A stretch of DNA of 64,000 bases, taken from positions 62,001 through 126,000 of the forward strand of contig NZ_CP073577.1 in assembly GCF_018205975.1 (NCBI RefSeq). Reading direction: 5' to 3'. The notes below the pieces were generated by a model. That model was not told where the DNA came from. It did no database searches and saw nothing but the letters and a program-made list of their open reading frames with translations. Positions within the stretch are counted from its first letter, which is position 1; each line of letters begins with the position of its first letter. The position numbers and the translations under genes were made by a program. Shown piece by piece: positions 34,588-58,658 of the stretch. The stretch comes from Erythrobacter sp. JK5 (GTDB taxonomy: Bacteria > Pseudomonadota > Alphaproteobacteria > Sphingomonadales > Sphingomonadaceae).

Positions 34588-35642
34588 TCACTGCGCTGCC
34601 ACTTCTCGGATGGGGACGGGGATGTTGCAGATATCCGCCCCGCCGGCGGGGACGATGAAGAACGGATCGCGGCGGTTGGCGCGGGCCTCGGCGTACTTGG
34701 CGAAAGTCTCGCTGTCGGTGGAGAGGTATTCGTAAGCGGGTTGTTCGCTCGCAGGCAGGTCGGAAGCGACGCGGATCGAAAGGATCGGCGTGCGCTTGTC
34801 CGCCTCCTCCTCGGTGTAGAAACCCAGCGCACCCGACCCGCGCGGCAGCGAGGAGAGGTGCTCCATCCCGCTGATGATCCGCCCGACCAGCGCGATGTTG
34901 CGATCGAGATGGCGCGGCGCGTGGCCGATCACGGTGTAAAGCTCCGCGCCCGAGCCGGTGTCGGGCGAGTAGGAGCGGCCCACGCCGACCATGCCGTAGC
35001 AGTGGACGGGCCACATAGAGCGGTCGTCATTTGAGGTGCCGACCGGCCAACCGCGAACAATGGTCGATAACTCAGCGTATCTATCGCCAAGGGTCAGCGG
35101 CTCTCCACCTATTTGCGAAAGAATATCTCCAATTGGGTTTTCAGAGTCCATTCCCCCGGCCAAGGCTGCGATCAGAAATGGAACCTCGAATTCTTCTTCG
35201 TTCGAGATGACGGATTCGGCGGGAACAGCATACTCATCCTCCCCATCACCTTCAGCTCCTCGGGCAGCGGCTTGGTCTCGGTCTCTCCGCTCTCCGGGTT
35301 GTCGTGTCCCGGATCGCCCCATTGCACGACGTAATTGTCCTGCACGCGGTTGACGCTGATCCCGTCGTACCATTCGGCGCGGGCGAGGGCGCGGATGTTA
35401 TCAACCCAGCCGTGCGAGAACGGCGCGGGCATAAGCTGGATCACCACCTTGCGCTCGTTGCCCTCGGCATCCTGAGCAAGCGTCATCACCAGCAGGTCCT
35501 CAGCCGGGATCGCGACCCATTCGCTCTGCGGCGCGGCGTCAACGATCTGGTTCGGCGAAGGAGCCCCTTCTGGTTCCTCCTGAGCGGAAGCCGGAAGGGC
35601 GATTGCGAGAGCCGTCAAGGCGGCGAGCAGTGGTTTGTTCAT
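34588..35642 (-). pseudogene. Peptidylprolyl isomerase (cyclophilin type), frameshifted
   Basis: Two frames together give one exported cyclophilin-type isomerase of about 350 residues. The first part (35642 down to about 35241) has a signal peptide ending LPASAQ and NRVQDNYVVQWGDPG. The second part (about 35240 to 34588) has WPVHCYGMVGVGRSYSPDTG and IALVGRIISGMEHLSSLP. Adding one base to the CCCC at 35241-35244 (GGGG on the coding strand) joins them exactly between VMG and EDEYAVPAE. It may be a true frameshift or a sequence error. The stretch right after the junction (about 55 residues) has lower GC and looks like an insertion in the domain. Confidence 0.85.
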
Positions 35643-36655: not shown

Positions 36656-37630
36656 ATGGAACAAGGGCTTCGCGGAGCGATTCTTGCAGGCGGACGCGGC
36701 ACCCGCATGGCTCCGTTGAACGAATTCTTCCCCAAACCGCTGCTCCCGATCATGAACCGGCCGCTGATCGAGTACCAGATCCTGGCGATGAAGAAGCTCG
36801 GCATCGATCAGGTCACGATCCTGATCGGACACAAGGGATATCTGATTTCGCAGGAGCTCGGCGACGGCGCGCGGCTGGGTGTGCAGATCACCTATGTCGA
36901 ACAGACCGAGGCGCTGGGTATCGCGCATGCGCTGGGCCAGCTCGCCCCGCATATCGACGGACCGTTCGTGCTGATGCTCGGCGATATCTACTTCGTCGAG
37001 GACGACCTCGGCGACATGGTGCGCATCTATCACGAATCCGCCTACAGCGCGGTGCTCGCGGCCAAGCGGGTCAGCGATCCGCGCGAAATGGCGAAGAACT
37101 ACGCGATCCTGACCGATCGCAAGGGCAGGGTGACCCGGGTCGTCGAAAAGCCGCGCGAAACGGCCAGCGAACTCAAGGGCGTGGGTCTCTACCTGTTCGA
37201 CGCCACGATTTTCGATGCGATCCGGCGAACGCCGCGCACCGCGATGCGCAACGAATACGAACTGACCGAAGCGATCCAGATCCTCGTGGAATCCGGGGCC
37301 GACGTGCGGGTTTCGGCCTGCGTCAAGGACGATCTCAATCTGACCAGCCCGGCCGACCTGCTGGCCTGCAACATGAAGGTCATGGCCAACTCCGGGATGC
37401 GGCAATGCATGGCGGAGGGCGCGCACGTCCACCCCGGTGCGGTGCTCCAGTCCTCGATTGTCGGGACCGGAGCACGGATCGCGCACCCGATCGCCATCCG
37501 CCGTTCGGTGATTTTCGCCGGCACGATCATCGATACCGACAGCGATCAGGACGGTATGGTGATCTCGCCCGGATGCGCGGTCGATGTGCGATCGCAGTTT
37601 ACCGACTGGCCATCGGCCTTGGTGGGATGA
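36656..37630 (+). CDS. Sugar-phosphate nucleotidyltransferase with C-terminal beta-helix
   Basis: A 324-residue enzyme that joins a sugar 1-phosphate to a nucleotide. GAILAGGRGTRMAPLN is the nucleotide-binding loop, FFPKPLLPIMNRPLIEYQI follows, and VLMLGDIYF carries the metal aspartate. From about residue 245 hexapeptide-like repeats (HPGAVLQSSIVGTGARIAHPI) suggest a left-handed beta-helix. The product sugar cannot be told. It opens the 36.6-47 kb island of sugar and radical SAM genes and could supply its glycosyltransferases. Confidence 0.9.
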   Translation: MEQGLRGAILAGGRGTRMAPLNEFFPKPLLPIMNRPLIEYQILAMKKLGIDQVTILIGHKGYLISQELGDGARLGVQITYVEQTEALGIAHALGQLAPHIDGPFVLMLGDIYFVEDDLGDMVRIYHESAYSAVLAAKRVSDPREMAKNYAILTDRKGRVTRVVEKPRETASELKGVGLYLFDATIFDAIRRTPRTAMRNEYELTEAIQILVESGADVRVSACVKDDLNLTSPADLLACNMKVMANSGMRQCMAEGAHVHPGAVLQSSIVGTGARIAHPIAIRRSVIFAGTIIDTDSDQDGMVISPGCAVDVRSQFTDWPSALVG

Positions 37631-37643
37631 TCGGGGCGGTGCT

Positions 37644-38315
37644 TCATCGTGTCGCGACGAGTCCGTCGATGACCCGGTTGGCAAGGAACAGCGCGTTGCC
37701 CCAGGTCCAGCGGGTCATGGCGAGGTGAGCCATGCGAAAGCCATATCCCCGCATCGCGTCGATGATCTCCTCGAGGCTGCTGTCGCCCCGGTAGAGCCCG
37801 CCCCAGCTAACCTCGATCCAGATGTAATCGATCTGTCGGAGCGTCGCGGTGGCGCCCGCCAGAACGTCGAGTTCGGCTCCCTGCACATCGAGCACCAGGG
37901 CGTTGCACCGTTCGGCCACGTCCGCACTCGCGATTTGCAACAGCCTGTCGAGCGTGCGGGTCTCGATCTTGCTGCGCGTTTCGAACTGCACTTCGGGGTG
38001 CACCGCGCGATGCCCGGACGGTTCGAGCAGCGAGGAAGACAACCCTTCGTTGCTGGCCACATGCCAATCCAGCATGGCGCCGTCCTCGCGCCAGCACGCC
38101 GCCTGAAGCGCGACGAAACCGGGCTTGCCTGCATCCGACACTTCGCGCTCGAGTGCGCGAAACACCTCCTCCTGCGGTTCGACGAGAACGGCCGACCGGA
38201 TCCCCCGCGCGGCATACTCGCTTACTTCCTGTCCGGAATTGGCCCCGACGTGGATGATACCGCGCGGCAACATGCCCATTCGTCCGAAGGTGAAATCGAG
38301 GAATTCGCAGGACAT
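37644..38315 (-). CDS. FkbM family methyltransferase
   Basis: A 223-residue SAM-dependent methyltransferase. GIIHVGANSGQEVSEY is the SAM-binding loop, VLVEPQEEVF the second strand, and NALVLDVQGAELDVLAG the FkbM hallmark with IWIEVSW after it. FkbM enzymes O-methylate sugars or polyketides. It is convergent with the nucleotidyltransferase and divergent from the GT-A-like gene, all within short gaps. Confidence 0.9.
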   Translation of the reverse strand: MSCEFLDFTFGRMGMLPRGIIHVGANSGQEVSEYAARGIRSAVLVEPQEEVFRALEREVSDAGKPGFVALQAACWREDGAMLDWHVASNEGLSSSLLEPSGHRAVHPEVQFETRSKIETRTLDRLLQIASADVAERCNALVLDVQGAELDVLAGATATLRQIDYIWIEVSWGGLYRGDSSLEEIIDAMRGYGFRMAHLAMTRWTWGNALFLANRVIDGLVATR

Positions 38316-38344
38316 CGACCTTACCTCCGGCTGGTGCGGTCGCG

Positions 38345-39103
38345 ATGACGCACGGCCCGCCTGGCACCTGGGACCGGGTCGTTATCGTCCCGACCTATGC
38401 GCGCAACACGGCGTTCCTGCGCGATTGCCTCGCCTCGCTTGCCGGTTACCGCGCGGTGCCGATCCTGCTGGTCGTGACTGCGGCCAGCCGCGAATCCGTC
38501 GCGGCGGCGACCGCGATTGCCGACGAGTTTCCCGGCACGGTTGCGCGCATCGAAACGCTCGAAGCCGACACGTCCGAATTGGGGGGCCTTCACGTCGCCT
38601 GCCGATGCACCAGCGCGCGGGAGATGTTCCTGTTGCACGACAGTTGCGAAGTGCTCGATCACGGCCTCTTCCGGATCGCATTCGACGAGCTGTGCGGATC
38701 GGCCGTCCCGATGCTGCGCAGCTACGGGCTGGTGTGGACTTCGTGCCTCGGAAAGTATCGCCGTGCGACGCTCGACCGGATCGATCCCGCGCTGCTGCTT
38801 CCCGGCGGACGTCTCGAAGCGATGGAGGCGGAGATCACCTTTACGCAGGCGTATTCGCGGGCGGAGCCGCAGCTGGTCGACTTTCCCGAGCCCATGCGCG
38901 AGACCGACGAGATCGTCGCGCGTCATGGCAGGGACAACCACCTGATGGCCAATTCCTACCTGAGGAAATGGAAGGCCAGCTGGTCGATCGATCATGTCTT
39001 TCGCTCGGCGCAGCAGGGCGCGCGGGACCCCGCCCGGATGCAGAGCGAGACACGCATGAGCCATGCGATCCTCGAAGAATTCTTCGGCAAGCCCAAAGAT
39101 TGA
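38345..39103 (+). CDS. GT-A-like putative glycosyltransferase
   Basis: A 252-residue protein starting with VVIVPTYARNTAFLRDCLASL, which matches the first strand and helix of GT2-type glycosyltransferases. The usual metal DxD is replaced by LLHDSCEV, so activity is uncertain. Later residues match no family I can name. It lies between the FkbM methyltransferase and the cupin gene, facing the latter tail to tail. Confidence 0.65.
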   Translation: MTHGPPGTWDRVVIVPTYARNTAFLRDCLASLAGYRAVPILLVVTAASRESVAAATAIADEFPGTVARIETLEADTSELGGLHVACRCTSAREMFLLHDSCEVLDHGLFRIAFDELCGSAVPMLRSYGLVWTSCLGKYRRATLDRIDPALLLPGGRLEAMEAEITFTQAYSRAEPQLVDFPEPMRETDEIVARHGRDNHLMANSYLRKWKASWSIDHVFRSAQQGARDPARMQSETRMSHAILEEFFGKPKD

Positions 39104-39122: not shown

Positions 39123-40310
39123 TCATTCTTCGACGACAATTTCGATGATCCCTTCCGCGACCATCCTGATCGCGAGCGCGGCACTGGCCTCCGGATCGTT
39201 GGGATTGATCTCGTCGATCGTGAAAACCGTCTTTTCGGCGAGGTGAGCCAGTTCGGGCAGGATCGCGGCCCGGCCCGAATCCCGCATGCGCAACCGGGTA
39301 TCGCAACTGGGGCGGAGCCCCAGGACGGCTCCGGTCAGCCCGTGCGATCTGGGTTCGGGCGGGTTGATGCCGTCGCCCACCGCCATCCGGTCGAGTGGAC
39401 CATTGCCGCATCGGCCCATCATCTGCCACAGCTTGTGCGCGGCTGCGACTTCGTTCAGTTCGCCGGTTTTCGCCGAAGTCCGAGGGTCGATCCTCACGCC
39501 CCGGCGGAAATCGAGTTCGCTGGCGGCATCGCCTGCCAGCATGCGCAGCACGTCGCTCCACGTCGGTATCCTCAGGCTGATGGTCAGGTGCAGCGAGGCC
39601 TCGCGCTCGGTCGTCTCGGCGCAGTGCGGGAAGCCGCGGGGAATATACAGAACATCTCCCTGACCGAGCGTGAAGCTCTCGATGGGCTCGTGGCGATCCG
39701 ACAGATCGAGCGTTGCAAGTTGGCTTTCGGTAGGAAGCTCGATTGCGGGATAGGTCACCTGCCACGCCTTGCTGCCGACGATCTGGCAAACGAACCCGTC
39801 ATGCGGATCGCAATGCAGCGCGAGCGCGCGCGATCCCGGCGGCGTCAGATAGGCATTCGCCGCGACCGCGCCGCCGATCGCGCTGGCGAGCCGGCTGCAA
39901 TACGACCGCACGCGGGGATGCCAGACCTGCAATCCCTGAAACAGGATCGATGCCCCGGTTTCGTACAGCGCCACCACGTTGTCGGGCAGAATTCGGGTCG
40001 CTAGCCGCGCATTGGTGCTACCCAGGTCACCGCAGAAGGCCTCCTTCGCCACGGCCGCGCCATCGCGCATCACGCGCACCTGCGGATAGGCCAGCAGATA
40101 GTTTTCGAGCGCCTCCTCGAGCTCGGTCAGAGTCACCAGTTCCTGCGGCTTTCGGACATCGGGGCGGTCGGCAGCCGGGAGATGGAAATATTGCTTCTCC
40201 CAGAATTCGTCGAAAAACCGGTCTTCGCCGAGCGGTGCAATCAGCGAACGGAGCGGATCATCCTCCGGCGCGGCTTTCACTTCTCTAGAGGTCGATCGGA
40301 ACTCCACCAT
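39123..40310 (-). CDS. JmjC/cupin_4-type Fe(II) oxygenase
   Basis: A 395-residue protein matching the cupin_4/JmjC ribosomal-oxygenase-like group. The iron triad is visible as H166 and D168 (ALHCDPHDGFVCQI) and H229 (IPRGFPHC). VGSKAWQVTYP between them is a typical strand. The C-terminal part (from about 290) resembles the winged-helix extension of such enzymes. Family members hydroxylate protein side chains with 2-oxoglutarate and oxygen. It is the last gene of the minus-strand operon and overlaps the GT2 gene by 34 bases. Confidence 0.82.
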   Translation of the reverse strand: MVEFRSTSREVKAAPEDDPLRSLIAPLGEDRFFDEFWEKQYFHLPAADRPDVRKPQELVTLTELEEALENYLLAYPQVRVMRDGAAVAKEAFCGDLGSTNARLATRILPDNVVALYETGASILFQGLQVWHPRVRSYCSRLASAIGGAVAANAYLTPPGSRALALHCDPHDGFVCQIVGSKAWQVTYPAIELPTESQLATLDLSDRHEPIESFTLGQGDVLYIPRGFPHCAETTEREASLHLTISLRIPTWSDVLRMLAGDAASELDFRRGVRIDPRTSAKTGELNEVAAAHKLWQMMGRCGNGPLDRMAVGDGINPPEPRSHGLTGAVLGLRPSCDTRLRMRDSGRAAILPELAHLAEKTVFTIDEINPNDPEASAALAIRMVAEGIIEIVVEE

Positions 40311-41152
40311 TTGCCGTCATCCCCACCCGCCGGTGCCGCCATCCGCTCGATCTTTCGCCGCGCGTCGGTCTCGCTCGCGCATCCGACCAGATTGGGTGCG
40401 CACGCCAGCCGATCGTGGATCGTCCTGACCTCGTCGAGAAATGCGCTCTCGCTTCGCATCCGCTGGAACTCGTTCGCCCCATGCAGGCGATACCGCACGA
40501 GCGGGTCGGCCATCAGCGCGATCCGCCGTCCGAAGGATAATCTGAGCCACGCCTCCCAGTCCGATGTCCATCGCAGGTCGGACGAAAACCCGCCCGCTTC
40601 GACCAGCGCATCGCGCCGCACCATGGCGCTGGACAGGCAAATCGGCGCGCTGCTCAGGATATCCTGCGTGGTGAGCTCGACGACGGGGTCTGTGGCCAGC
40701 GCTTCGATCATCGCATGCCAGAGGATGAGGCTGGGGTCGGGCTGCCCGGTCTGCACGAGCAATTCCGGGACCGTCGCAATCAGATCGAAATGCGGAGACG
40801 CGCGGACGGTCTCGATCTGCCGGGCGAGCTTTTCCGGGTGCCAGATGTCGTCCTGATCGCAAAAGGCGAGCCAGCGTCTGTTCGTGTTCGCGATCGCGAG
40901 ATTGCGTGCCGCCGCAACGCCCTGCGCGCCCGAGCCCGGCGTATCCAGCTGTCGGCGACATTGGGGGCTGCGACGGACCCATTCTTCGATGATCGCGCGC
41001 GAGCGATCCTGCGATCCGTCATCGACAATCACGGTTTCGAACCCGGCGAAGGTCTGGTCGTCCAACCCCGCCAGCGCCTCGTGCAGGAACGGTTCGCCGT
41101 CGTGCACGGGGACGATCACGCATACTTCGGTATGGGAGCGTCCGTCAGGCAT
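40277..41152 (-). CDS. Family 2 glycosyltransferase
   Basis: A 291-residue GT2 enzyme. EVCVIVPVHDGEPFLHEALA begins the GT-A fold, TVIVDDGSQDRS binds the nucleotide, WLAFCDQDDIWHPEKL contains the DxD, and WTSDWEAWLRL carries the presumed catalytic acid. No membrane helix is present. The ATG at 41152 overlaps the end of the radical SAM gene by eight bases; the longer frame to 41356 is antifamily sequence. Confidence 0.9.
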   Translation of the reverse strand: MPDGRSHTEVCVIVPVHDGEPFLHEALAGLDDQTFAGFETVIVDDGSQDRSRAIIEEWVRRSPQCRRQLDTPGSGAQGVAAARNLAIANTNRRWLAFCDQDDIWHPEKLARQIETVRASPHFDLIATVPELLVQTGQPDPSLILWHAMIEALATDPVVELTTQDILSSAPICLSSAMVRRDALVEAGGFSSDLRWTSDWEAWLRLSFGRRIALMADPLVRYRLHGANEFQRMRSESAFLDEVRTIHDRLACAPNLVGCASETDARRKIERMAAPAGGDDGKWWSSDRPLEK

Positions 41153-42077
41153 CGACAGGTGCCTCCGCCGCGAAAATCCCCGATGCCGTATCTGACATGG
41201 CCAGCAGGCACAGGTCGCATTCGGTGGCGAACCTGCGGTCGCGGGCGAGCTCGGCCAGGCGAGCCTTCTGCGCCTCGTCCAGAGTATCGATGAATCCGCC
41301 ACCGACCATGCGCACAAAGGCCTCGTTGCCCTCGAGCGCGCCGAAGCGGCGGGCAAGGTCGCCTACCGGCCCCTTGATCGAGATCGGGCTGTCTTCGACC
41401 GACGAAGCCCAGCAGCAGCCGTGCAGGTCTCCCGACTCATCGATGAAGGCGTTGCCTGCAACGCAGCTTCGCTTGATCGCTTCGAGGTCGCCGGGCGAGT
41501 TAACCGGCGGCGACAGTTCAAGGCTTTCCTCCAGCAACGCATTTCCAACGCCGACCACCGGCATGACATTGATCATTTCTCGCGCGAGATGGGGTGCCAT
41601 GTCCTCGATCGCCGCCCGGCCCTCGGCCTCGGACGCGGCGGATACCTGCAGAACCGGGGTGAAGCCGCGCGCCTTCGCCATCCGGATCGCGCGCAGGTAA
41701 TCTTCGCGCTTGAGAAACTCGAGGTGATACTTGTCGTAGCTCAGGATCAGCAGCCGCACCGGGCCGATGCTCGACAAGAGCCGCTCCGCCGTGCGCTCGG
41801 CGCGCGCCCAGATCGGTGCAGTCACCACCGCCGGGATCAATCCGCGAGCGGCCGCGGCCTGCGCGCCGACCGCGATCAGATCGGCGTTCAGCGTCGGCTC
41901 TCCGCCCGCGAACAGCGCGATCTGGTAGCTGGCGGTATCGATCGCCTCGATCATCTCGGTCAGGCGCGCGGGTGACAGCGCCGTACCCCGGCTGTGGTCG
42001 CCGTCCGAAAACCCCAGCGAGCAGTGCCGGCATTTGAGCGGGCACGTCTGGTTGATGTTGATCGTCACGGAACGCAT
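41145..42077 (-). CDS. Radical SAM protein 1 of the operon
   Basis: A 310-residue radical SAM enzyme. The cluster motif C-x3-C-x2-C is C12, C16, C19 (TCPLKCRHC). GGEPTLN binds the SAM amino group. C-terminal cysteines (SCVAGN, HGCCW, CDLC) could bind a further iron-sulfur cluster as in SPASM/twitch enzymes. AAGGAGC precedes the ATG at 42077, which overlaps the upstream gene by 13 bases. The target is presumably made by the same operon. Confidence 0.9.
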   Translation of the reverse strand: MRSVTININQTCPLKCRHCSLGFSDGDHSRGTALSPARLTEMIEAIDTASYQIALFAGGEPTLNADLIAVGAQAAAARGLIPAVVTAPIWARAERTAERLLSSIGPVRLLILSYDKYHLEFLKREDYLRAIRMAKARGFTPVLQVSAASEAEGRAAIEDMAPHLAREMINVMPVVGVGNALLEESLELSPPVNSPGDLEAIKRSCVAGNAFIDESGDLHGCCWASSVEDSPISIKGPVGDLARRFGALEGNEAFVRMVGGGFIDTLDEAQKARLAELARDRRFATECDLCLLAMSDTASGIFAAEAPVDA

Positions 42078-43204
42078 GCGGGCTCCTTGTGCTGCATCGC
42101 ACGTTCGAGCGCACAGTCGATCGGCGGGAGTTCGAGCACGCGCGAGCGATACTGCCGCCGCTTGGCGGGAGCCGCGGCGAGCGCTTCCAGGATGGCTGAT
42201 GCGAGGTCCGTGTGCCGAGAAAGATCGAACAGCTGCATCGCATCGAGCAACGGATTGTCGGCGACCAGCGGGTCGAGGAACCGGCGATACCCGATCGGCC
42301 AGACCCAAAAGGGCGCAACCTCGCCGCCCGACGAAGCGATGAGGCAAACCGGGCGGTCATGCGCCAGCGCCAGCGCATTGGTGGTCGCCGAAAGATTGCA
42401 CGACAGCACCAGGTCGCAGTCCCTGATCTGCCCTATCATTGCGCTATGCTCCAACTGCCCCAGCCACTGATAATTGCTGGGCGGGTGAGGCAGGGGGGTG
42501 GGGCCGACATGGACCAGCCGGGCTTGCGCACCCAGTCGATCGAACGCTTCGCGGATGCAGCCGGTAACCCTGCGTGCCAGCTCGTTCGCCGGTTCGGCTC
42601 CGCCAAGGAATTGCGATTGCCAGTCACCGGTCGCGAACAGCACGCGCGCAGCACCGATCCGGCGGTTCGGGTCGGAAAGCGGGACCGGCTCGCCCGTTTC
42701 GAGTGCACAGAAGCGATGTCCGCCGCCATCGGGTTTCGCGATCGGCACAGGCACCAGTCGGGCCAGCTTGCGATGCCACTCCGCCAGCATCGCCGCGTGA
42801 TCCCCGCGGTAGATCGGTTGCGGCGGAAGCCCCGCCACATCCTGCACCAGACCGGTTTCCGCGCTATCCCAAACGTCCAGCGTCGCAGAAGGAATTCGGT
42901 CGAGGTAGAGATCCTGACCCTTGCCCAGCAAATGGGCGCTCGATTGCAGGTCGAAATGCGCGATTGTATCCGGATCGAACCGCCGCACGAGGTCATCGAT
43001 CGTCGCGCGATCGATCGCTGCAATCCCGGTCAGCGGGACGATCTCGGCCGCGATCCCTTCGAACAGCGGCAGCGCCTGCCGCGCGACGGCGACCACGGTT
43101 TGCTGCCCCTTGCGCGACCGGTTGCGCGCGAGCTGCGCGGCGTATCCCGCTCTGCCCCAGCTAGCCGGATGCGCCGCGACGACAAGGATGGGAGCCGCCT
43201 TCAT
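42065..43204 (-). CDS. GT-B-like protein A (paralogue pair)
   Basis: A 379-residue protein of two Rossmann-like halves. It starts ILVVAAHPASWGRAGYAAQL and ends with a segment including PFWVWPIGYRRFLDPLVADNP. The same pattern occurs in the next gene upstream, so the two are paralogues. The overall plan resembles GT-B glycosyltransferases or UDP-GlcNAc epimerase-like proteins; VHVGPTPLPH is a likely middle strand. A named family is not certain. It starts in an ATGA overlap with its paralogue. Confidence 0.72.
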   Translation of the reverse strand: MKAAPILVVAAHPASWGRAGYAAQLARNRSRKGQQTVVAVARQALPLFEGIAAEIVPLTGIAAIDRATIDDLVRRFDPDTIAHFDLQSSAHLLGKGQDLYLDRIPSATLDVWDSAETGLVQDVAGLPPQPIYRGDHAAMLAEWHRKLARLVPVPIAKPDGGGHRFCALETGEPVPLSDPNRRIGAARVLFATGDWQSQFLGGAEPANELARRVTGCIREAFDRLGAQARLVHVGPTPLPHPPSNYQWLGQLEHSAMIGQIRDCDLVLSCNLSATTNALALAHDRPVCLIASSGGEVAPFWVWPIGYRRFLDPLVADNPLLDAMQLFDLSRHTDLASAILEALAAAPAKRRQYRSRVLELPPIDCALERAMQHKEPACVP

Positions 43205-44454
43205 GCCAGAACGTCCGCAACGAGGGGTTCGGATCGCGACCTTGCCGGGGGCAACCGACCGACCGGAGGAAGTTCGTGCGCCCAGTCCGCATAGGCAGCG
43301 AGGTCCGCACGGGCATCGGCACGGGTGGCCTCGTCTAGCAGCAATGCGCCGAGCTGCTCGCGCATGCCCGCGAGATCGAGATAGTCGGCAAAGCGCAAGG
43401 CCGAGGTATAGGGATTGTCGGCCAGCACGGGGTCGACGAACCTGCGATACCCCAGCGGCCAGAGATGGAAGGGGAAGGCGGGGAGGCTGGCATCGAGCCA
43501 TTCGCGTTGTCCTTCATCAGCGTCGTGGAGAAATTCGGGTGGCATGTCATCGCGGGTCGCGGCGCGGATCGAGCCTCCGATCACGAGGATCGGCACACCG
43601 TCGGCGATGGCGCGCACATTGGTGCTGGCGCTGACATTGGCGGTCAGCAGCAGATCGACCGAAGCGACCAGGCTCTCGAACCGCTCGGGCCGCATCGTGG
43701 GGAGCCAGACCTGCTGGCGCCCGAGCCCGAAATCGAGTTTCTCGGGACCGACATGGACCAGCGCGACATCGCTGCCGAACGCCCGCAGCTGGAGGCCGAT
43801 CAGGCGCGGTAGGGCCTGCTGCAACCGTCGCGCGCTCTCGTCCTCGTAATGGGCATGCTGCCAGCCCGCCGTGCACACCAGCACGATCCTGCGATCGTCG
43901 GCGTTGAGGTCGCGGCGGATGTGACGCCTGACCTTGCGAGCGAGCTTGAGCGGTTCGGGGACGACCGAAAAGGGCACCGCGTCGCTCGATCCGGTGCCCA
44001 TCGGAACCGGTTCGAGCCGACCGGCGAAATCGGGGCGCCAGTCCGGAAACGGGCGGCGTGTGGTGCCGTACAGGTCGATCACATGCCCGGCCCTGGCCGA
44101 GCACCACGTGTCGATGGCATAGATCGGCACGTCAAAACCGCCGAACACCGCCGCGAACTCCTGACCGCTCCGTTCGAGCGCGAGGGTCGTCGTAAACCAG
44201 TCCCCCAACACGATTGCGTCCGGCCGGAAATTGCGGACCGAGCCGCTCAGGAAGAACTGCATCATCGGCAGCACATGGTCGGGGATGATCGTTGCCGGCT
44301 GCGCGGCATCCTGCAGCACTTTCGTCGCGCATTCATGCGCCAGGAAATGCGTCGTGTGCCCGGCTGCGCGCAGCTGCGACGCCAGCTCGACCGCATGGCG
44401 CGTTTCGCCAAGCCCCTTGGGCGTCAGGCACAGAAAAAGGATCCGCCCGCTCAT
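43201..44454 (-). CDS. GT-B-like protein B (paralogue pair)
   Basis: A 417-residue protein. It starts ILFLCLTPKGLGETRHAVEL, typical of the glycine-rich loop of GT-B enzymes. It contains VHVGPEKLDFG and ANVSASTNVRAIADGVPILV in the C-terminal half, and shares PFHLWPLGYRRFVDPVLADNP with protein A. It overlaps radical SAM gene 2 by four bases (ATGA) and gene A by four. A glycosyltransferase role is an inference from fold features. Confidence 0.72.
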   Translation of the reverse strand: MSGRILFLCLTPKGLGETRHAVELASQLRAAGHTTHFLAHECATKVLQDAAQPATIIPDHVLPMMQFFLSGSVRNFRPDAIVLGDWFTTTLALERSGQEFAAVFGGFDVPIYAIDTWCSARAGHVIDLYGTTRRPFPDWRPDFAGRLEPVPMGTGSSDAVPFSVVPEPLKLARKVRRHIRRDLNADDRRIVLVCTAGWQHAHYEDESARRLQQALPRLIGLQLRAFGSDVALVHVGPEKLDFGLGRQQVWLPTMRPERFESLVASVDLLLTANVSASTNVRAIADGVPILVIGGSIRAATRDDMPPEFLHDADEGQREWLDASLPAFPFHLWPLGYRRFVDPVLADNPYTSALRFADYLDLAGMREQLGALLLDEATRADARADLAAYADWAHELPPVGRLPPARSRSEPLVADVLA

Positions 44455-45494
44455 GCGCAGACGGCCTCGGTTTCGAACCACTCGTGATCCTCGACGGGCG
44501 CTTCGCGCAACGTGAGCACCAGCCTGGCATTGATCCGCGCACGAATATCCGGCTGTCGGGTGTATTGCCTGAGCGCCGCCGCGCCTTCGGGTGTCGACAG
44601 GACCGAGAAGCACATATCGCATGCGCAGGTGAAGGCTTCGCGGTCCAGGGCCCGGCGAAGATCGGGGGTGGCCTCGACGACTTCGGCGACGCCTTTCGGC
44701 CCGTGCACCCGCAGGAACTGGTAGTCGGCGCGCCGCCGCACCCGCGCCATCATCTGCCCGAAGCTTTCTTCGGCCAAGTTGCCCAGCCAGTAGGGGATTT
44801 CGCGCATGTCGCGGTGCGCGCCCGCCTTGCCGACATGGCAGGCAAATACGTTGCCGTCGGGATTGACGATCGGGGTATCGAGCCAGCAGCGCATCGCATA
44901 GTCCGATTGCGACAGGCCGAGCCGTTCGTCCTCTCCGCGCAGAAGCTTCTTGGTGAAGGGGGTGGGGATCACGCGCTCTTCGATGATGTCGAGCCGGTCG
45001 CCGTACTCGGCATACCACGATTTCACCCGCTCGAGATCGGCGGTGGACGAATAGGTGATGACGATCGACACCGTCCCGACTCCGGTCGCGAGACTGGCAT
45101 CGATGGCGTTCCGGACATTCTGGACCGGCACTTTCAGCTGGTGGTAGACATCGGTGCTGAGATAGATCTGTCCGAGCCCGCGGAGCCGGTTCATGCGATC
45201 GAGCGCGCAGTCGCGATCGCCGGCCCAGAACGAGCTGGTGAAGACTGCGGTGCCGACACCAGCGCGATGCGCTTTCCGGACCGCCGCTTCGAGCGTCTCG
45301 AACCGTTCGAAGCTTTCGCCGCCGGTGAAGATGATGGTCGGGATTCCGTAGTCGCCGATATCCCCGATCCAGCGCAGCAGCGACGCCTCGTCGGCATCCT
45401 TGTCCCGGCTCGAGCCGAGAAACCCGCAATGGGCACAGCCGACGTCGCATCCTTCGGTGGTGCTCACCAGGATCGACTTGAACCGCGTTGTCAT
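44451..45494 (-). CDS. Radical SAM protein 2 of the operon
   Basis: A 347-residue radical SAM enzyme. C16, C20 and C23 (GCDVGCAHC) bind the iron-sulfur cluster and TGGESF binds SAM. Cysteines in RCWLDTPIVNPDGNVFACHVG and CACDMC form a SPASM-like C-terminal region, found in peptide-modifying enzymes. It is separated from radical SAM gene 3 by one base and overlaps GT-B-like gene B in ATGA. Confidence 0.9.
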   Translation of the reverse strand: MTTRFKSILVSTTEGCDVGCAHCGFLGSSRDKDADEASLLRWIGDIGDYGIPTIIFTGGESFERFETLEAAVRKAHRAGVGTAVFTSSFWAGDRDCALDRMNRLRGLGQIYLSTDVYHQLKVPVQNVRNAIDASLATGVGTVSIVITYSSTADLERVKSWYAEYGDRLDIIEERVIPTPFTKKLLRGEDERLGLSQSDYAMRCWLDTPIVNPDGNVFACHVGKAGAHRDMREIPYWLGNLAEESFGQMMARVRRRADYQFLRVHGPKGVAEVVEATPDLRRALDREAFTCACDMCFSVLSTPEGAAALRQYTRQPDIRARINARLVLTLREAPVEDHEWFETEAVCA

Positions 45495-45495
45495 G

Positions 45496-46461
45496 TCAGC
45501 GCGCTTCCGCGGCCATCGGCGCGCGGACTACCGCGAGGTCCGGGTCCGCTGCGGCGACTTCGGCTTCGGTCAGCGGACGGATTTCGTCCCAACCGAAGAA
45601 TTCGACGTATTCGCCATAGACCCCGCCGCAGATCGATTTCCCGGGGCACTTGCTGCATTTCTCGCCCTGGATGCGCATCTCGAACCGCATGAAATCGTCG
45701 TAGTCTTCCAGCACCTCTCCGCGCATCAGCATCCTGATCGCGCGATATTCGTTGTGGAGGTGCAGTTCGTCGCGGCCGTTTCCGGTGACGACGCAGTGCG
45801 GGAACCCTTCGAGCGTGACGGTGCGTTCGGCTCCGCGTACGATGTCGATCGCGTCGTCGAGCGGCGGGAGGATCTCGGTGAGCATTGGCATCATCGTCGC
45901 GCGGGCGATGCGCGCGCTGCCGACCGGGTGCATGTTGGAAATGTTCACGTGATCGACGCCGATGTCGCAGGCGAGCCGCGCAATGTCGGGCAATTGCAGA
46001 AGGTTCTGATATGTCACGACCGTGTTGGTGCGAATGTGAATGCCCTCGGCATGCGCCATGCGCATTCCGGTAACGATCCGGTCGAACGAGCGGCGATGGA
46101 AGGTCTGCGCCTCCTGGGTCTCTGCATCCGCGCCGTGCAGAGACACGATCAGCTTCGAGACATTGGCGGCCTTCAGCCGATCGAGCATTCCCGGTTCGGC
46201 AAGTCGCACTCCGTTGGTCTGAAGGTGAATCTCGCGATATCCGAGCTGGCGGATCAGTTCGATCGTCTCGAAGAACCGCGGATAGATCGTCGGCTCACCC
46301 CCGTGCAGGTTCACCACGTCGAACTTGCCCGCATTCTCGTGCAGGAAGCCCTCGATGTCGGCGCGGCGGATGGTGTCCTTGGTGTAGAGCGGAGACCCCA
46401 CCACGCAGAACGAGCATTCGCTGTTGCACAGGTCGGTCAGGTGAATGCTGATACACTTCAT
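45496..46461 (-). CDS. Radical SAM protein 3 of the operon
   Basis: A 321-residue radical SAM enzyme. C12, C16 and C19 (LCNSECSFC) carry the cluster, and HGGEPTIYPRF follows. The C-terminal KCSKCPGKSICGGVYGEY has the CxxC and later cysteine expected of a SPASM/twitch auxiliary cluster. The start at 46461 is chosen because the cluster motif then lies near the N-terminus; 31 upstream residues in the same frame look like untranslated leader. It follows the small protein gene after 163 bases of hairpin-rich DNA. Confidence 0.9.
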   Translation of the reverse strand: MKCISIHLTDLCNSECSFCVVGSPLYTKDTIRRADIEGFLHENAGKFDVVNLHGGEPTIYPRFFETIELIRQLGYREIHLQTNGVRLAEPGMLDRLKAANVSKLIVSLHGADAETQEAQTFHRRSFDRIVTGMRMAHAEGIHIRTNTVVTYQNLLQLPDIARLACDIGVDHVNISNMHPVGSARIARATMMPMLTEILPPLDDAIDIVRGAERTVTLEGFPHCVVTGNGRDELHLHNEYRAIRMLMRGEVLEDYDDFMRFEMRIQGEKCSKCPGKSICGGVYGEYVEFFGWDEIRPLTEAEVAAADPDLAVVRAPMAAEAR

Positions 46462-46502
46462 TGCTGGATCCCGGAATTGCGGCGCGGCATGGTCCGGGGC
46501 GC

Positions 46503-46541
46503 GGGGAAGACGGGGTGCTGTCACACCCGCGCCTCTTCCCC
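46503..46541 (-). terminator. Strong hairpin between the small protein gene and radical SAM 3
   Basis: GGGGAAGA (46503-46510) pairs with TCTTCCCC (46534-46541), and inside it GGGTG pairs with CACCC. It lies in the transcript between the first and second genes of the operon and could stop part of the transcription or protect the first message. Confidence 0.55.
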
Positions 46542-46599
46542 GGCGCCCGGCCATCCGGCCCGACCGTTGCGGCAGTCGTCACCGGCGAGGGTAGTCGGC

Positions 46600-46616
46600 C
46601 CGTCACCGGGTGACGG
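46600..46616 (-). terminator. Short hairpin just after the small protein gene
   Basis: CCGTCACC-G-GGTGACGG is a perfect stem of eight bases beginning eight bases behind the stop of the small protein gene. Together with the larger stem at 46503 it forms two hairpins before the next gene. Confidence 0.5.
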
Positions 46617-46624
46617 ATCGGCGA

Positions 46625-46942
46625 TCAGGCGTCGTAGGAAAACGAGTTCGCGAGATCGGCCTTGCCCGGGATCGTCAAGATCGCGCCGATTTCGGCATCG
46701 CTGAAATTGAACGTACCGCGGAAACGTTCCGGATCCTTCATCAGGGCCTTGGCAAAGGTTTCGTTTTTCGAAGCGATGCGCATCGCGTCGCTCATGCCCA
46801 GGCGCTCGGTGTCCCGCTCGGGCTCGTCGGCATCGATGAGATCGCGGATCAGCGACGGTTGGCGAATGATCGCCCGCGCCAGCCGTTCGTCCGTATTCAC
46901 CAGCTTCACGGCATCGGAGAAAGTCAGTTTAGCCTTGGACAT
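46625..46942 (-). CDS. Small repeated protein, candidate substrate of the radical SAM operon
   Basis: A 105-residue protein that heads the operon; AAGGAGCG lies before the ATG at 46942. It has no cysteine, signal peptide or membrane helix. Residues 9-35 and 51-77 are similar (SDAVKLVNTDERLARAI against SDAMRIASKNETFAKAL, each followed by a proline and Arg), and a third SDA starts at residue 81. The C-terminal 20 residues are small and polar, ending SFSYDA. Its size, position and strong ribosome site fit a peptide precursor or carrier of the modifying enzymes behind it, but no known leader family is recognised. Confidence 0.75.
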   Translation of the reverse strand: MSKAKLTFSDAVKLVNTDERLARAIIRQPSLIRDLIDADEPERDTERLGMSDAMRIASKNETFAKALMKDPERFRGTFNFSDAEIGAILTIPGKADLANSFSYDA

Positions 46943-47914: not shown

Positions 47915-49018
47915 CTATCGCCGCCAAACACCCGGTTCGATGCCCACTTTCGCCGTTTCGATCCACAGCGAGTAGTGGGACACATCGACATAGACGCCCG
48001 GCATGTCGGGCATACCGCATCCCTTGCCCCACGATACGAGGCCTACAAGCCGCTCGGTCCCGTCCGAGCGCTTGGTGATCAGCGGGCCTCCGCTGTCTCC
48101 CCGGCATGAATCGCTGAAGACGTCGTCTTCGCCGTCGCGAGCGCGGCCCAGACCGCAAATCATCCCGCGCGCAAGGCTGCCCTTGAGCGCCGAATACTTC
48201 CTGCATTCCCGGTAAGAGAGGTATGTCACCCCGACATAGTGCAGGCTTGACGGAGAACGCTGGAGTTTGCCGTCCTTGTCCAGCCGCAGGTTCTCCGCGC
48301 CATGAACGAGCGGACCCGTCACCCCCCAGCCATACACTTCGAGCGGCCGGGCTCTGAGGCTTGCCTCTCCGTAAAGCTCGCGCTTGAACAGGCGGATGCT
48401 TTTCAATCGGCCCGACTGGATCGACCCGCGCTTGCCGCGCGTGGTTATCCGGATCAGGGCAATGTCATGGCTCTTGCCGCCGGGCTCGTATTTGCGATGG
48501 ATGACGACTGCATCGATCGGATAGGTGGCTCCTCCTCCGCTGATCGATTGCGTGCCCATCCTTACCCGGCGATCGGTGAGGACATCGTTGACCTTGTCGC
48601 CCACGAACGGTTTTCCGGCAACGCAATGCGCCGCGGTAACGATCCAGAGCTCGCCGAGATAGGCCCCGCCGCAGCGGTGATTGAGCTCGTAATCGTTGCG
48701 TTCGTTCAGGTATTTCTTTGCCTCGCCGCCCGGATTGCGTGAAGCGATGGGCGACAGCGTCGCGTCATGCCGTTTTTCGGCAGCGGTGTAAGGCACGGTG
48801 GAGTAGATCTGCACCTGCCAGGGCGCAGCACCCGGAGGAGCCTCCGACCCCAGGATGATCGGCTCCGCGCCCTTCGGTGGATATTCGTCGCCCTCATCCT
48901 CGGGCAGGACCTGGTAAACGGATCGGTCCTCATCTTCAGGCTCAGGCGGTTCGGGTTGGCTGGAGCCCAGCGACAGCCCGCCGATCGCAAGCAGGGCGAG
49001 AAATCTTGGCAGCGCCAT
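47915..49018 (-). CDS. Exported trypsin-like serine protease 1
   Basis: A 367-residue S1-family protease with a signal peptide (about residues 1-20) and an acidic proline-rich pro-region. The triad is H131 (TAAHC), D185 (HDIALIR) and S309 (GDSGGP). A 30-residue insertion before the histidine (PYTAAEKRHDATL to YLNERNDYELNHR) is shared with the protease at 55158. Cleavage preference is not determined. It begins five bases after the ClpP-like gene, so both form one unit divergent from the caspase operon. Confidence 0.9.
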   Translation of the reverse strand: MALPRFLALLAIGGLSLGSSQPEPPEPEDEDRSVYQVLPEDEGDEYPPKGAEPIILGSEAPPGAAPWQVQIYSTVPYTAAEKRHDATLSPIASRNPGGEAKKYLNERNDYELNHRCGGAYLGELWIVTAAHCVAGKPFVGDKVNDVLTDRRVRMGTQSISGGGATYPIDAVVIHRKYEPGGKSHDIALIRITTRGKRGSIQSGRLKSIRLFKRELYGEASLRARPLEVYGWGVTGPLVHGAENLRLDKDGKLQRSPSSLHYVGVTYLSYRECRKYSALKGSLARGMICGLGRARDGEDDVFSDSCRGDSGGPLITKRSDGTERLVGLVSWGKGCGMPDMPGVYVDVSHYSLWIETAKVGIEPGVWRR

Positions 49019-49023
49019 CCCGC

Positions 49024-49671
49024 CTAGTCCCCTTCCGCCCTGCTGCTGCATCTGGCGGCGCGCTGGGCGGCGGTTTCACCGCTGTCTGGGACAGGTGTCG
49101 AGCTCATCTGGAAACGGTTGATTTCGGCTGGCGACATCCAGTGCATGCGATCGGCGGGTGCCGCCGCGATGGTGAACCAGTAGAATTCGGGCGAAATCCC
49201 GATCGCCTTGAAATAATCCAGGAAATCCTCGTGATCTTCGTGATCGCGAGGCACATCGGTTGCCTGATAGGCCGGCGGTCCGGCGTCTTCCCAGCTGTGC
49301 ACGCCGATGCAGGCGCCCGGCTCGATGATCCGGTGCCGCCCGGCGAGAAAGAAATCGGTCCCGCCCGAGGCGACCAGTCCATCACCCGGCACCACGGTGG
49401 TAAAGCCGTCTCGATGCAGCTTCCATGCCGTCCCCAGGTATTCGTTGTCGTCGTCGGACCCGGGTACGAATTCCATCACCAGTACCCTGATGGCGGGATG
49501 ATCGCGGCGGACGCGATCGATATGGGCTCCGGTTTCCGGAACCAGCGTCCCCTCCGCGACGAAGTAGCCGTCCTGCGGCGTCAGTTCGAACGGCTCGAGT
49601 TCGTCCTGAGACGCACTGGCGGTGAGCAGTGCGGCGACCGGCAGCAAGGCCAGAGCGTGTCGAAAAAGCAT
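49024..49671 (-). CDS. Periplasmic ClpP/crotonase-fold protein (COG3904-like)
   Basis: A 215-residue protein with a signal peptide (residues 1-20). The central segment GLVASGGTDFFLAGRHRII is the place where such proteins carry the serine, and GACIGVHSWED the histidine. The likeness to COG3904 is moderate, so activity is uncertain. It is directly followed by trypsin-like protease 1, and its start lies 88 bases from that of the caspase 1 gene in the other direction. Confidence 0.65.
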   Translation of the reverse strand: MLFRHALALLPVAALLTASASQDELEPFELTPQDGYFVAEGTLVPETGAHIDRVRRDHPAIRVLVMEFVPGSDDDNEYLGTAWKLHRDGFTTVVPGDGLVASGGTDFFLAGRHRIIEPGACIGVHSWEDAGPPAYQATDVPRDHEDHEDFLDYFKAIGISPEFYWFTIAAAPADRMHWMSPAEINRFQMSSTPVPDSGETAAQRAARCSSRAEGD

Positions 49672-49702
49672 TGTCCCCCGGAATGCGAGCGCCTTCGTGC
49701 CC

Positions 49703-49708
49703 TTGACA
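49703..49708 (+). promoter_or_regulatory. Possible -35 element in the divergent promoter region
   Basis: TTGACA occurs in the 88 bases between the divergent ClpP-like and caspase 1 genes. A convincing -10 at the right distance is not seen, so this is only a hint at where transcription of the caspase operon begins. Confidence 0.25.
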
Positions 49709-49759
49709 GGCTATAGCAGGTTTGAAAGCGTGTAAAACGGCACGTGGAGGGCGGGCCTT

Positions 49760-52700
49760 ATGGCAATTTTTTCAGTTGCTTGCCGGAATATCCTCCGATC
49801 ACCAGCGGTGATTGGCGTGTCTTTTCTCGTCCTCCTCACTTCGTGCAACCTGTTCGATGAACTGGAAGCGGTAGCCGAATACGGGCCGACGCCGGTCGAC
49901 CTGCAGCCAAAGATCGTGCTGCAAAGCCTGCCGACCAAGGGCATCGAAGTCGCAGCGTGGACCCCGAACAGCGACTATATCATCACCGCCGTCGGCCCAA
50001 CCCGATCGATTGCGATCTGGGAAGTGGAAACCGGTCATATTATCGATCGGCTCAGAATGCCGGCCGAACCGGGGCGAACAGGTGCGCTGCTGCGTTTGAG
50101 CGGCATGGAGGTCACCCCGGACGGCAATACCGCCGTGATCGAAGGGCTGTCTGCGCGATACGTTCGGGAAGGCGAATATGTCGATCCGCGAACGATGCGA
50201 TACGAACTGGATCTGAAAACGCACACGGTCACCATCGCCGCTTCGGATCCGGAGCCAGGCGTCGATCTACAAGAAATCGAGCTGGCCGCCGATGCGCTCG
50301 AGGCGATATTCGAGAACGACGAAGAGGAATTCGACACCCTCGACGAGGCGTTTGACGAACTCCCGAGCCTGCCGGACTCGCCTGATGGCACATGGACGCT
50401 GACGCGGCTACCGGTCCCGACCGAGCTCGAAGAGGACGAAATTCCGGAAGGTGGCCTCCTGCTTGTCAACACCGTTGATGGGTCGGAGAGGGAATTGCTT
50501 CACTCGCCGATGCAGAAGTACGACGCGGCGACGCTTTCGCCCACCGGTCGCTGGCTCGCGATGACCAATGACAAGCTGGACGGAGGCGGGGATGAAGAGG
50601 GCGGGCTCGAATATTCGATTATCGAAATCTACGACATTCAGACCGCGGCCTTCGAACCGCAAGTCAGGATCTTGGGCGATTACAGTCATATCCAGTGGCT
50701 GTCCGACGATCACTTCGTCGTTACCGAAACCTCGGTGCGACATGACGGGATGCGCGACGGTGCGCCAGACACGGGGCCGCCGCCCGATGCCGTTATCGTC
50801 AATGCGCGCGGCGGTGAAATCGAGCTGCGGATCGAGGCAAGGTGTTACATGCTGGCGGTGGCCGAAGAGACCTTCGTGGGCGCCGGGGCGAAAACCTGCC
50901 GGGCGTTTCCGCAGGGCTCTTATGGCCTCCAGAAATTTGATGTGGAGACCGACGAATGGGTCGGCTTCGGCCCGAGCGAACTCCAGGAAAACCCGCTGAT
51001 CGATCTGATCGCCGTCTCCCCTGACGGCTCGCTACTGGCGGTGACCGAAGCGACGTCGGCTGATATCGATGACGGCGCGCTGGTCGGTCACATCATCGAT
51101 GCGGCAACGGGCGAATTGTTGATAAGCCGGGTGTTCGAAGAACTGTCGTTCAGCGACATGATCGCATTCTCGCGGGACGGTGAAGACCTTTTTGTCTCCG
51201 GCAACGGGCAGATATTTCGCTGGAAATTCGAATCCGACGAATGGGGCCCGATGGCGATCTCCTCGCTCGATACGACGCTGTTGCACCAGCATGGAGATCT
51301 GTTTGCGGTTGCAGGCGAGGCCGACGATGCAATCGGATTGCTCGATTTCGCCAGCGGAAAATCCTTGCCCTCGCTGCACTTCGGCAATGTTTCGTCGGGC
51401 GGGTTCTTCCCCGACAAACCGTTGTTCTGGGCGTTCTCTGCCGAAGAGGGGCTGCGCCTGTGGGACACGCGCGACTGGTCGGTCGTGCTGACCACCTTCT
51501 TCTTCGATCATCAGGGCTTCCTCGCGGTCACGCCCGATGGCCGCTACGACAGCAACGTCCATCCCTACGATGCCCGATTCCGCTGGCTAGTCCCGGACCA
51601 GCCGAATGTGTCGCTGAACCCCGATGCCTTCAGCCGGGATTACTATACGCCCGGACTGACCGAGCGCTGGATCGATTGCACCGTCGACGACGATTGCGAC
51701 AGTGCCTTTGCCCCGATCAAGCCGCTCGCGTTTCTCAACCGCGACTTGCCCAAGGTGGAGATCGTCGACGTCGTGCCGGGAGAGAGTGCGAGCGAGGCCA
51801 TCGTAACCGTCGAGATCAGCCGTCCGCAGGGCTCGGGAACCGACGAAAGTCTTCCGTGGGCTTACGACCCGCGCGTGTTCCGCAACCACCAGCTCGTCTT
51901 CCGCCAGTCCGGCTCCGCGAATCAGGACGGCGACGACCTGCTGGAGTGGCGTCATTCCAACGCATTGGCATCAGAGGATGCAGACGAAACGGGGACCATT
52001 CGGCTGACCAGCGTGGTCTCGCTCGGCACGAGCGATCGACCCGAAGATCAGGTCCCTGTATTCACCGCCTATGCCTTCAATGAAGACCGGATCAAATCGG
52101 AAACCGCGTTTCTCGACTATACCCGGCCCGAAGTCGAGCCGCGCACTCCCAGGGCTTTCGTAATCGCGATCGGCATCGATCACTACCAGGAACCGCGCCT
52201 CAATCTCAATTTCGCCGGAAACGATGCGACCTTGATGGCCGAAAGTCTGGGCCAGATTCCCGGCCATGAAATACGCACGCTCTCGCTTCGCACCACAGGG
52301 ACTGGCGCTGACACTGCACTTGCTGACCCGGGGGCGGATACAGGCAGGGTCGCCAGTGCGTCTGCATTCATCTCTCCTGCGATCATCAGCGATATTCTCG
52401 CCATTCTCTCCCAACCGCAGGCTCCCGAGGCGCGCCTGCGGCTGAGTGCGCTGGGCATCGACGCCTCGATGCTCGAGCAGGCGACACCCGACGATCTGGT
52501 GATCCTCTCATACGCGGGCCACGGCTGGACCGACAGCAGAGGCGAGTTCTACCTCGTGACTTCGGACGCCGTCTGGTCGGAGGACGAGGGCGCGCCCGAC
52601 GAAGGCGGGCTCGTGTCTTCCGTCGACCTGGCCAACTGGATGAGCGCTATCGACGCCGGCACGATGGCGCTGATCATCGATGCCTGCCATTCGGCAGCGA

Positions 52701-53008: not shown

Positions 53009-53114
53009 TTTTCCACGATCAACCCGAAGGTTTCGTCGAAAAGCGCATTCAGGAACCTTCGCTGTTCGACTTCACGGTGATCCCGCGCCCGATCGTCTTG
53101 CGACAGGCGGCGCG

Positions 53115-55154: not shown

Positions 55155-55157
55155 GTC

Positions 55158-56300: not shown

Positions 56301-56344
56301 GGGGAGCCATTGCTCCCCTCAAATCGTTCTGAGCGAGATCGGCC

Positions 56345-56605: not shown

Positions 56606-56636
56606 TGTTTTTCCCCCTCAATCGAGAAATGATTTT

Positions 56637-58574: not shown

Positions 58575-58658
58575 GCCCCAGGCCCACCTCTTGCCGATAC
58601 TCAAGATATTGCAATTGCGACCGAACCGTCACGTCATGCACGATATTGACCGTGCTCG

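What the first reader, a model, noticed from the sequence alone, without database searches (positions are those of the whole stretch)
39123..46942. Eight-gene operon resembling a new class of modified-peptide (RiPP-like) pathway
A strongly translated 105-residue protein is followed by rSAM3, rSAM2, two GT-B-like proteins, rSAM1, a GT2 and a cupin_4 oxygenase. From rSAM3 to the cupin, neighbours are separated by one base or overlap by 4 to 34 bases. Radical SAM enzymes with SPASM-like ends, glycosyltransferases and JmjC-type hydroxylases all modify peptides or proteins in known systems. I know of no described RiPP class with this combination. No exporter or leader peptidase is seen, which leaves room for an intracellular or glycoprotein role.
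Basis: partly seen in the sequence, partly recalled or inferred. Interest (0 to 1): 0.85.

Follow-up and report, generated by a model that had tools for sequence, protein, structure and literature searches.

The report
Orphan operon for peptide modification
A bacterial operon pairs one small two-repeat protein with three radical enzymes, three likely sugar transferases and an oxygenase; it looks like an undescribed pathway that decorates a small peptide, but no second copy was found and nothing has been shown in the laboratory.

Summary
In detail: seven genes (46461-39123, minus strand) lie one base apart or overlapping behind a 105-codon gene with a good ribosome site. rSAM1 and rSAM2 are full-length relatives of the peptide epimerase EpeE/YydG (profile E 2e-24); rSAM1 keeps the hydrogen-donor cysteine, rSAM2 has histidine. 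rSAM3 is nearest to HxsC. The two 'GT-B' genes are paralogous DUF6365 proteins, which a profile comparison ties to one GT1 glycosyltransferase (E 4e-4, probability 34%; 33 controls 0.095 or worse). The last gene resembles the hydroxylase NO66. The small protein is a 38-residue module twice plus a 21-residue tail, without Cys, His or Trp. Best reading: a RiPP-type pathway that epimerises, hydroxylates and glycosylates the tail. The enzyme families are fairly secure; that the small protein is the substrate is inferred from position. The small protein was found in 1 of 150 and 1 of 133 genomes, DUF6365 in 1 of 150, 385 and 398, always the host, so no class can be claimed.

The parts
46625..46942 (-). 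small protein, 105 aa: residues 5-42 repeated at 47-84, then a 21-residue tail (IGAILTIPGKADLANSFSYDA); candidate precursor
   Evidence: translation; repeat score 56; 0 of 2000 shuffles reach it, best 42; ribosome site; no Cys, His, Trp
46462..46624 (-). structured spacer between small gene and rSAM3 (possible attenuator or mRNA stabiliser; role inferred)
   Evidence: 46462-46630 folds at -98.8 kcal/mol, z -4.19, 0 of 200 shuffles; first hairpin alone z -0.91
45496..46461 (-). rSAM3, 321 aa, HxsC/HxsC4-like radical SAM protein, CxxxCxxC at residues 12-19 and a CxxCxxxxxCGG end
   Evidence: (PF04055 1e-20; HxsC4 107 bits against a cut-off of 500; HxsC 83 against 268)
44451..45494 (-). rSAM2, 347 aa, EpeE/YydG-like, with His where EpeE has Cys223
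43201..44454 (-). GTB1, 417 aa, DUF6365, probable GT-B glycosyltransferase
   Evidence: (PF19892 8.7e-58)
42065..43204 (-). GTB2, 379 aa, DUF6365, paralogue of GTB1 (27.6% identity)
   Evidence: (2.3e-20)
41145..42077 (-). rSAM1, 310 aa, EpeE/YydG-like, keeps the EpeE donor cysteine
   Evidence: (YydG 57 bits against a cut-off of 300)
40277..41152 (-). GT2 family glycosyltransferase, 291 aa
   Evidence: (PF00535 4.5e-22)
39123..40310 (-). JmjC_2/cupin_4 oxygenase, 395 aa, NO66-like, HxD...H present
   Evidence: (PF08007 1.8e-25)
36656..39103 (.). adjacent, membership uncertain: NTP-transferase (36656-37630 +), FkbM methyltransferase (37644-38315 -), GT-A-like protein (38345-39103 +), 13, 29 and 19 bases from the next gene
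   Evidence: on the non-syntenic side of the breakpoint

Best explanation
The operon is a RiPP-type pathway. The small protein is the substrate: its two copies of a leader-like module may dock some of the enzymes, and its C-terminal tail is the core. rSAM1 probably abstracts a C-alpha hydrogen and returns one from its own cysteine, giving D-residues, as EpeE does. rSAM2 uses the same scaffold without that cysteine, so it probably starts from the same kind of radical and ends differently (oxidation, or a carbon-carbon or ether cross-link; a thioether is excluded if the small protein is the only substrate, since it has no cysteine). rSAM3 adds a further, unassigned radical step. The JmjC enzyme probably hydroxylates a residue of the tail, and GT2 and the two DUF6365 proteins probably attach sugars. 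Shown here: enzyme families, conserved residues, paralogy, internal repeat, operon layout. Inferred: that the small protein is the substrate, every reaction, their order, and the fate of the product.
For: Full-length profile match of rSAM1, rSAM2 and two relatives to EpeE/YydG chains (2e-24); CxxxCxxC and a C-terminal CxxC are kept in both, the donor cysteine in rSAM1 (role of Cys223 from passages of PMC8326336 and PMC5682303). In 6 of the 7 plasmid relatives fetched (of 11 hits) the gene just upstream encodes a protein with a 24-residue run of 19-24 residues from AVILNGF, the look of known epimerised cores (recalled). The second half of the small protein has one NCBIfam hit, a RiPP leader domain (Os17, E 0.017). 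DUF6365 aligns with one GT1 enzyme over 254 columns, 33 other sequences clearly worse. The JmjC enzyme is nearest to NO66 and MINA hydroxylases and its HxD...H aligns. A JmjC-type hydroxylase is predicted in a peptide cluster, bpm (passage of PMC12257519).
Against: No homologue of the small protein was found, so leader, core and co-occurrence rest on one sequence. The Os17 hit is 15 bits against a cut-off of 40, and with the whole protein an unrelated holo-ACP synthase model scores slightly better (E 0.034 against 0.049). A model of leader-like regions from relatives' neighbours put the small protein only 9th of 830 sequences listed (1 real, 1000 shuffles given). Its best 24-residue window has 16 AVILNGF residues, unlike the plasmid proteins. 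EpeE-type and proteusin epimerases are said to act without the leader, which weakens the docking idea. No RRE model, exporter or peptidase was hit. NCBIfam scores are far below equivalog cut-offs. PbsQ, a cupin-like relative of BpmG, gave no further modification in co-expression (passage). The hhalign probability for DUF6365 and GT1 is only 34%, with a single GT1 enzyme tested. rSAM3's nearest solved chain is cytosylglucuronate decarboxylase, BlsE.
Confidence: 0.5

Rival explanations
1. The enzymes modify some other protein or peptide (for example a cell-surface protein), and the small two-repeat protein is a docking or chaperone factor rather than the substrate.
For: The small protein is mostly two repeats of one module with a short tail; no homologue shows a conserved core; no RRE model was hit in the eight proteins, so it could be the recognition subunit.
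Against: It is the first gene, with a structured spacer behind it, the usual place of a precursor (recalled); a promoter-like site lies upstream but is weak evidence (1 found, 0.5 expected). No other candidate substrate gene stands in the operon.
Confidence: 0.2
2. The operon makes a glycosylated small molecule or a nucleoside or sugar derivative, not a peptide; the radical enzymes act on sugars.
For: DUF6365 kin stand in polyketide-type neighbourhoods (annotated, by eye); the nearest PDB chain of rSAM3 is BlsE; an NTP-transferase and an FkbM methyltransferase are adjacent.
Against: The rSAM1/rSAM2 profile matches the peptide epimerase EpeE over positions 15-311, while the other chains listed match no further than position 197 of 361; none of the eight proteins hits a polyketide or NRPS family.
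Confidence: 0.15
3. A redox-cofactor pathway analogous to mycofactocin: the C-terminal Tyr or Phe region of the small protein is processed to a small cofactor that is then oligo-glycosylated.
For: A radical SAM plus GT2 pair recalls MftC and MftF (start of the abstract of PMC7491314 in the listing); GT2 matches the MftF model weakly (53 bits); no exporter among the eight.
Against: No MftB, MftD or MftE model among the hits shown; MftC and MftF cut-offs (265 and 280) not reached (66 and 53 bits).
Confidence: 0.1

Closest known systems
Epipeptide pathway (YydF / EpeE = YydG)
   Same: rSAM1 and rSAM2 share the whole EpeE length in a profile match; rSAM1 also keeps the position of donor Cys223.
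   Different: Two such enzymes, one without the donor cysteine; a third, HxsC-like radical enzyme; glycosyltransferases and an oxygenase; a small protein without a YydF-type hit; no export genes.
Mycofactocin
   Same: Ribosomal peptide, radical SAM enzyme and a GT2 that glycosylates (PMC7491314, abstract start in the listing only).
   Different: No MftB, MftD or MftE model among the hits shown; three radical enzymes; DUF6365 pair; JmjC enzyme.
His-Xaa-Ser (HxsABCD) system
   Same: rSAM3 is nearest to HxsC4 and HxsC among NCBIfam models.
   Different: HxsC cut-off not reached; no HxsB or HxsD model among the hits shown (25 of 64 shown for rSAM3, 25 of 42 for rSAM1); the small protein has no histidine.
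JmjC-containing peptide clusters (bpm, pbs)
   Same: A JmjC-type or cupin-like gene in a RiPP cluster (passages of PMC12257519).
   Different: There: MNIO, arginase and B12-type radical SAM enzymes; the cupin-like PbsQ showed no activity in co-expression. None of those partners is among our eight proteins.

Membership tests
Epipeptide (EpeE-type) pathway | Full-length homology of the radical SAM enzyme to EpeE | tested here: met
   Four-row profile A3 against PDB chains: 8ai6 2e-24 over profile positions 15-311 of 361
Epipeptide (EpeE-type) pathway | Score above the curated YydG equivalog cut-off (300 bits) | tested here: not met
   57.2 bits (rSAM1) and 37.6 (rSAM2)
Epipeptide (EpeE-type) pathway | Hydrogen-donor cysteine (Cys223 of EpeE) | tested here: inconclusive
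   Met in rSAM1 (CC), not met in rSAM2 (CH)
Epipeptide (EpeE-type) pathway | YydF-like precursor with export and protease genes in the operon | tested here: not met
   Small protein: no Pfam hit, and in NCBIfam only weak holo-ACP synthase and Os17 hits; none of the 8 proteins hits a transporter or protease family
RiPP (any class) | Small gene beside modifying enzymes | tested here: met
RiPP (any class) | Recognised leader domain or RRE | tested here: not met
   Os17 leader 15.2 bits of 40; no PqqD or RRE model among Pfam hits up to E 1 for the 8 proteins. Pfam misses many RREs (recalled)
RiPP (any class) | Modified peptide detected | not testable with these tools
   needs mass spectrometry
Sactipeptide / ranthipeptide | Cysteine in the precursor for a thioether | tested here: not met
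   small protein has no Cys
His-Xaa-Ser system | HxsC above cut-off and His-Xaa-Ser repeats | tested here: not met
   HxsC model 83 of 268 bits; no His in the small protein
Mycofactocin | MftC and MftF above cut-off, MftB present | tested here: not met
   MftC 66 of 265 (rSAM3), MftF 53 of 280 bits (GT2), no MftB model among the hits shown
GT-B glycosyltransferase (for DUF6365) | Homology over both Rossmann domains | tested here: inconclusive
   hhalign with one GT1 enzyme: E 4.3e-4, probability 34%, 254 columns; best of 33 other sequences 0.095 over 19 columns. PDB sequence searches gave nothing useful; structure prediction could not be run
JmjC_2 hydroxylase | HxD...H metal ligands (motif recalled) | tested here: met
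   aligned with NO66 chain 4y4r

The most novel reading that the evidence does not exclude
A new RiPP class: a precursor with a duplicated leader module whose short tail is epimerised by an EpeE-type enzyme, altered by a second EpeE-type enzyme that has lost its donor cysteine and so ends the radical in another way, hydroxylated by a NO66-like oxygenase and then glycosylated by two DUF6365 enzymes and a GT2.
Probability: 0.3. Interest if true: 0.8.

Novelty: new variant of a known kind. Interest (0 to 1): 0.55.

Why it matters
If true, it would join three kinds of peptide chemistry (stereochemical change, hydroxylation, glycosylation) on one ribosomal peptide in one short operon, give DUF6365 a likely function (glycosyl transfer), and offer a natural pair of EpeE-type enzymes with and without the hydrogen-donor cysteine, which is a direct test of what that residue decides.

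Tried and rejected
(1) Orthologous clusters: PF19892 in 1 of 150 relatives, 1 of 385 genomes of the class and 1 of 398 of the phylum, each time the host itself (draws overlap). A single-sequence and a three-row scan of genome contigs gave 0 and 2 loci, the latter actinobacterial. Viral contigs gave none for DUF6365 or the small protein, and for the rSAM profile one 20-residue match (L054) that I did not follow. Plasmids gave one Streptomyces DUF6365. (2) rSAM kin in the order: 30 of 246 genomes at E 1e-10; besides the host four lie below 1e-18. Six stretches of those four were compared with the eight proteins: only radical SAM matches. My GC-based gene caller misses AT-rich genes, so L046, L047 and L050 were also read by ORF list. 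The narrower profile A3 gave 1 of 385 in the class at 1e-20, the host. (3) Idea that the tail resembles that of a 76-aa protein beside a tandem rSAM pair in L046: rejected, 235 of 2000 shuffles reach the score. (4) Idea that rSAM1/rSAM2 and the L046 pair descend from one pair: not supported; the L046 two group together (100/98) and rSAM1 and rSAM2 are unplaced. (5) Idea that all relatives keep the donor cysteine: wrong; by the motif list, 12 of 17 EpeE-like sequences show CC there; rSAM2, L046a and three in L048 do not (the L048 three judged by eye). (6) A clean insertion at tRNA-Ser: not shown.
Full report
What is there. The junctions from rSAM3 to the cupin are +1, -4, -4, -13, -8 and -34 bases. 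All eight show the codon-position GC of this high-GC genome. The 105-codon gene has AAGGAG seven bases before its ATG, with a 16S duplex of -8.0 kcal/mol; GT2 has -9.5, so 'strongly translated' is plausible but not exceptional. One sigma-70-like site is found upstream of the small gene at 47089-47062 where shuffles give 0.5 on average, so it is weak evidence. The 169 nt from the end of the small gene to rSAM3 fold far better than their shuffles (z -4.19, 0 of 200), although the first hairpin alone does not (z -0.91, 44 of 200).

The radical SAM enzymes. All three carry CxxxCxxC (sequences). A profile of rSAM1, rSAM2 and two L046 relatives finds EpeE/YydG chains first among solved structures, over positions 15-311 of 361 (2e-24); the other 11 of the 14 chains listed start at 4.7e-6 and reach position 197 at most. 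In EpeE Cys223 is the proposed hydrogen donor (passages of PMC8326336 and PMC5682303). That it is the second of two adjacent cysteines I infer from the 8ai3 chain, which has alanine there (that this is the C223A mutant is recalled). rSAM1 has CC at that place; rSAM2 has CH. Of 17 EpeE-like sequences in the motif list, 12 show CC and 5 do not (rSAM2, L046a, three of L048, the last three judged by eye). The tree leaves rSAM1 and rSAM2 unplaced. rSAM3 is another kind: nearest the HxsC4 and HxsC models, far below their cut-offs, with BlsE the nearest solved chain by single-sequence search.

The other enzymes. GTB1 and GTB2 both belong to DUF6365 (8.7e-58 and 2.3e-20) and are 27.6% identical. No paper in the library names DUF6365. 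A four-row DUF6365 profile aligns with one GT1-type glycosyltransferase of a Streptomyces plasmid over 254 columns (E 4.3e-4, probability 34%); 33 other sequences, among them the reversed enzyme, gave 0.095 or worse over at most 62 columns. Sequence searches of the PDB gave nothing useful. The three DUF6365 kin seen stand in polyketide-type neighbourhoods: annotated in the Streptomyces plasmid, read by eye from the gene starts in L013 and L014. GT2 is an ordinary family 2 enzyme. The last gene is a JmjC_2 protein nearest to NO66 and MINA, and its HxD...H aligns with NO66.

The small protein. Residues 5-42 and 47-84 are an internal repeat: ungapped BLOSUM62 score 56, with 0 of 2000 shuffles reaching it and 42 the highest. 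The tail is 21 residues. The protein lacks Cys, His and Trp, which excludes thioethers, Trp cross-links and His hydroxylation if it is the only substrate. Its second half has one NCBIfam hit, the Os17 RiPP leader domain (E 0.017, 15.2 bits of 40); with the whole protein Os17 gives 0.049 and a holo-ACP synthase model 0.034. The first half has no hit, and Pfam has none for either half or the whole. A model of leader-like regions from relatives' neighbours put it 9th of 830 sequences listed (1 real, 1000 shuffles given). These are hints, not proof. Apart from the host itself no relative was found in 150 relatives or 133 genomes of the order, nor on plasmids or viral contigs.

Relatives and context. 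rSAM2 has 11 plasmid matches; I fetched seven. In six of the seven the gene just upstream encodes a protein with a 24-residue run holding 19-24 residues of A, V, I, L, N, G or F; the seventh has 16, and so does the small protein of this window. No background control was run for that count. It fits precursors of epimerised peptides (recalled), and it also shows that our small protein is not of that look. rSAM1 found nothing on plasmids or phages. JmjC-type genes are predicted in the bpm peptide cluster, but the related PbsQ did nothing in co-expression (passages of PMC12257519).

Place in the genome. Four of four relatives fetched keep RelA/SpoT, the cyclophilin-like gene (window 35172-35642) and tRNA-Ser(GGA) together; the matched part of the gene and the tRNA are about 80 to 625 bases apart. 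In the window the tRNA lies at 60813-60903, 25 kb away and in the other orientation relative to SpoT, and DNA similarity ends between 35555 and 35657. The operon and its NTP-transferase, FkbM, GT, ion channel, protease, caspase and TIR neighbours lie in the stretch between, which those relatives lack there. The gene beyond the tRNA (aldehyde dehydrogenase) was not found in the four stretches, so a rearrangement is as likely as a plain insertion.

Verdict. I call it an orphan candidate RiPP pathway with an unusual enzyme set, at confidence 0.5, and a new variant of a known kind.

Noticed in passing
window 47915-58604: Next to the operon: two trypsin-like proteases (47915-49051, 55158-56300), two caspase-domain proteins (49760-53008 with a weak beta-propeller hit, 52941-55154) and a TIR-TPR protein (56637-58604); the 1082-aa caspase protein was in 1 of 61 genomes at E 1e-50, the host. 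Possibly a defence-like set.
   Followed up: partly
L046:9483-12567: In a relative of the same family, two EpeE-like radical SAM genes in tandem (one with CC, one with CG), then a gene that looks like a heme-oxygenase-like oxidase (by eye, not searched) and a 76-aa protein ending in GGFVW: another candidate peptide pathway.
   Followed up: partly
L048:9294-13592: Four radical SAM genes in a row, three EpeE-like without the CC donor motif (by eye), next to a gene that looks like an aldo-keto reductase (by eye).
   Followed up: no
L007:5213-5947 and L012:2599-3504: Proteins upstream of rSAM2 relatives on a Klebsiella and a Thermus plasmid carry alternating Ala-Asn or X-Asn runs, reminiscent of polytheonamide-like cores (recalled), with methyltransferase genes nearby.
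   Followed up: partly
window 52654-52747: An ARAGORN tRNA-Gly call lies inside the end of a caspase reading frame, on the other strand; probably false.
   Followed up: no
window 36656-39103: NTP-transferase, FkbM methyltransferase and GT-like genes packed on alternating strands between the operon and the conserved flank; could supply or extend sugars.
   Followed up: partly
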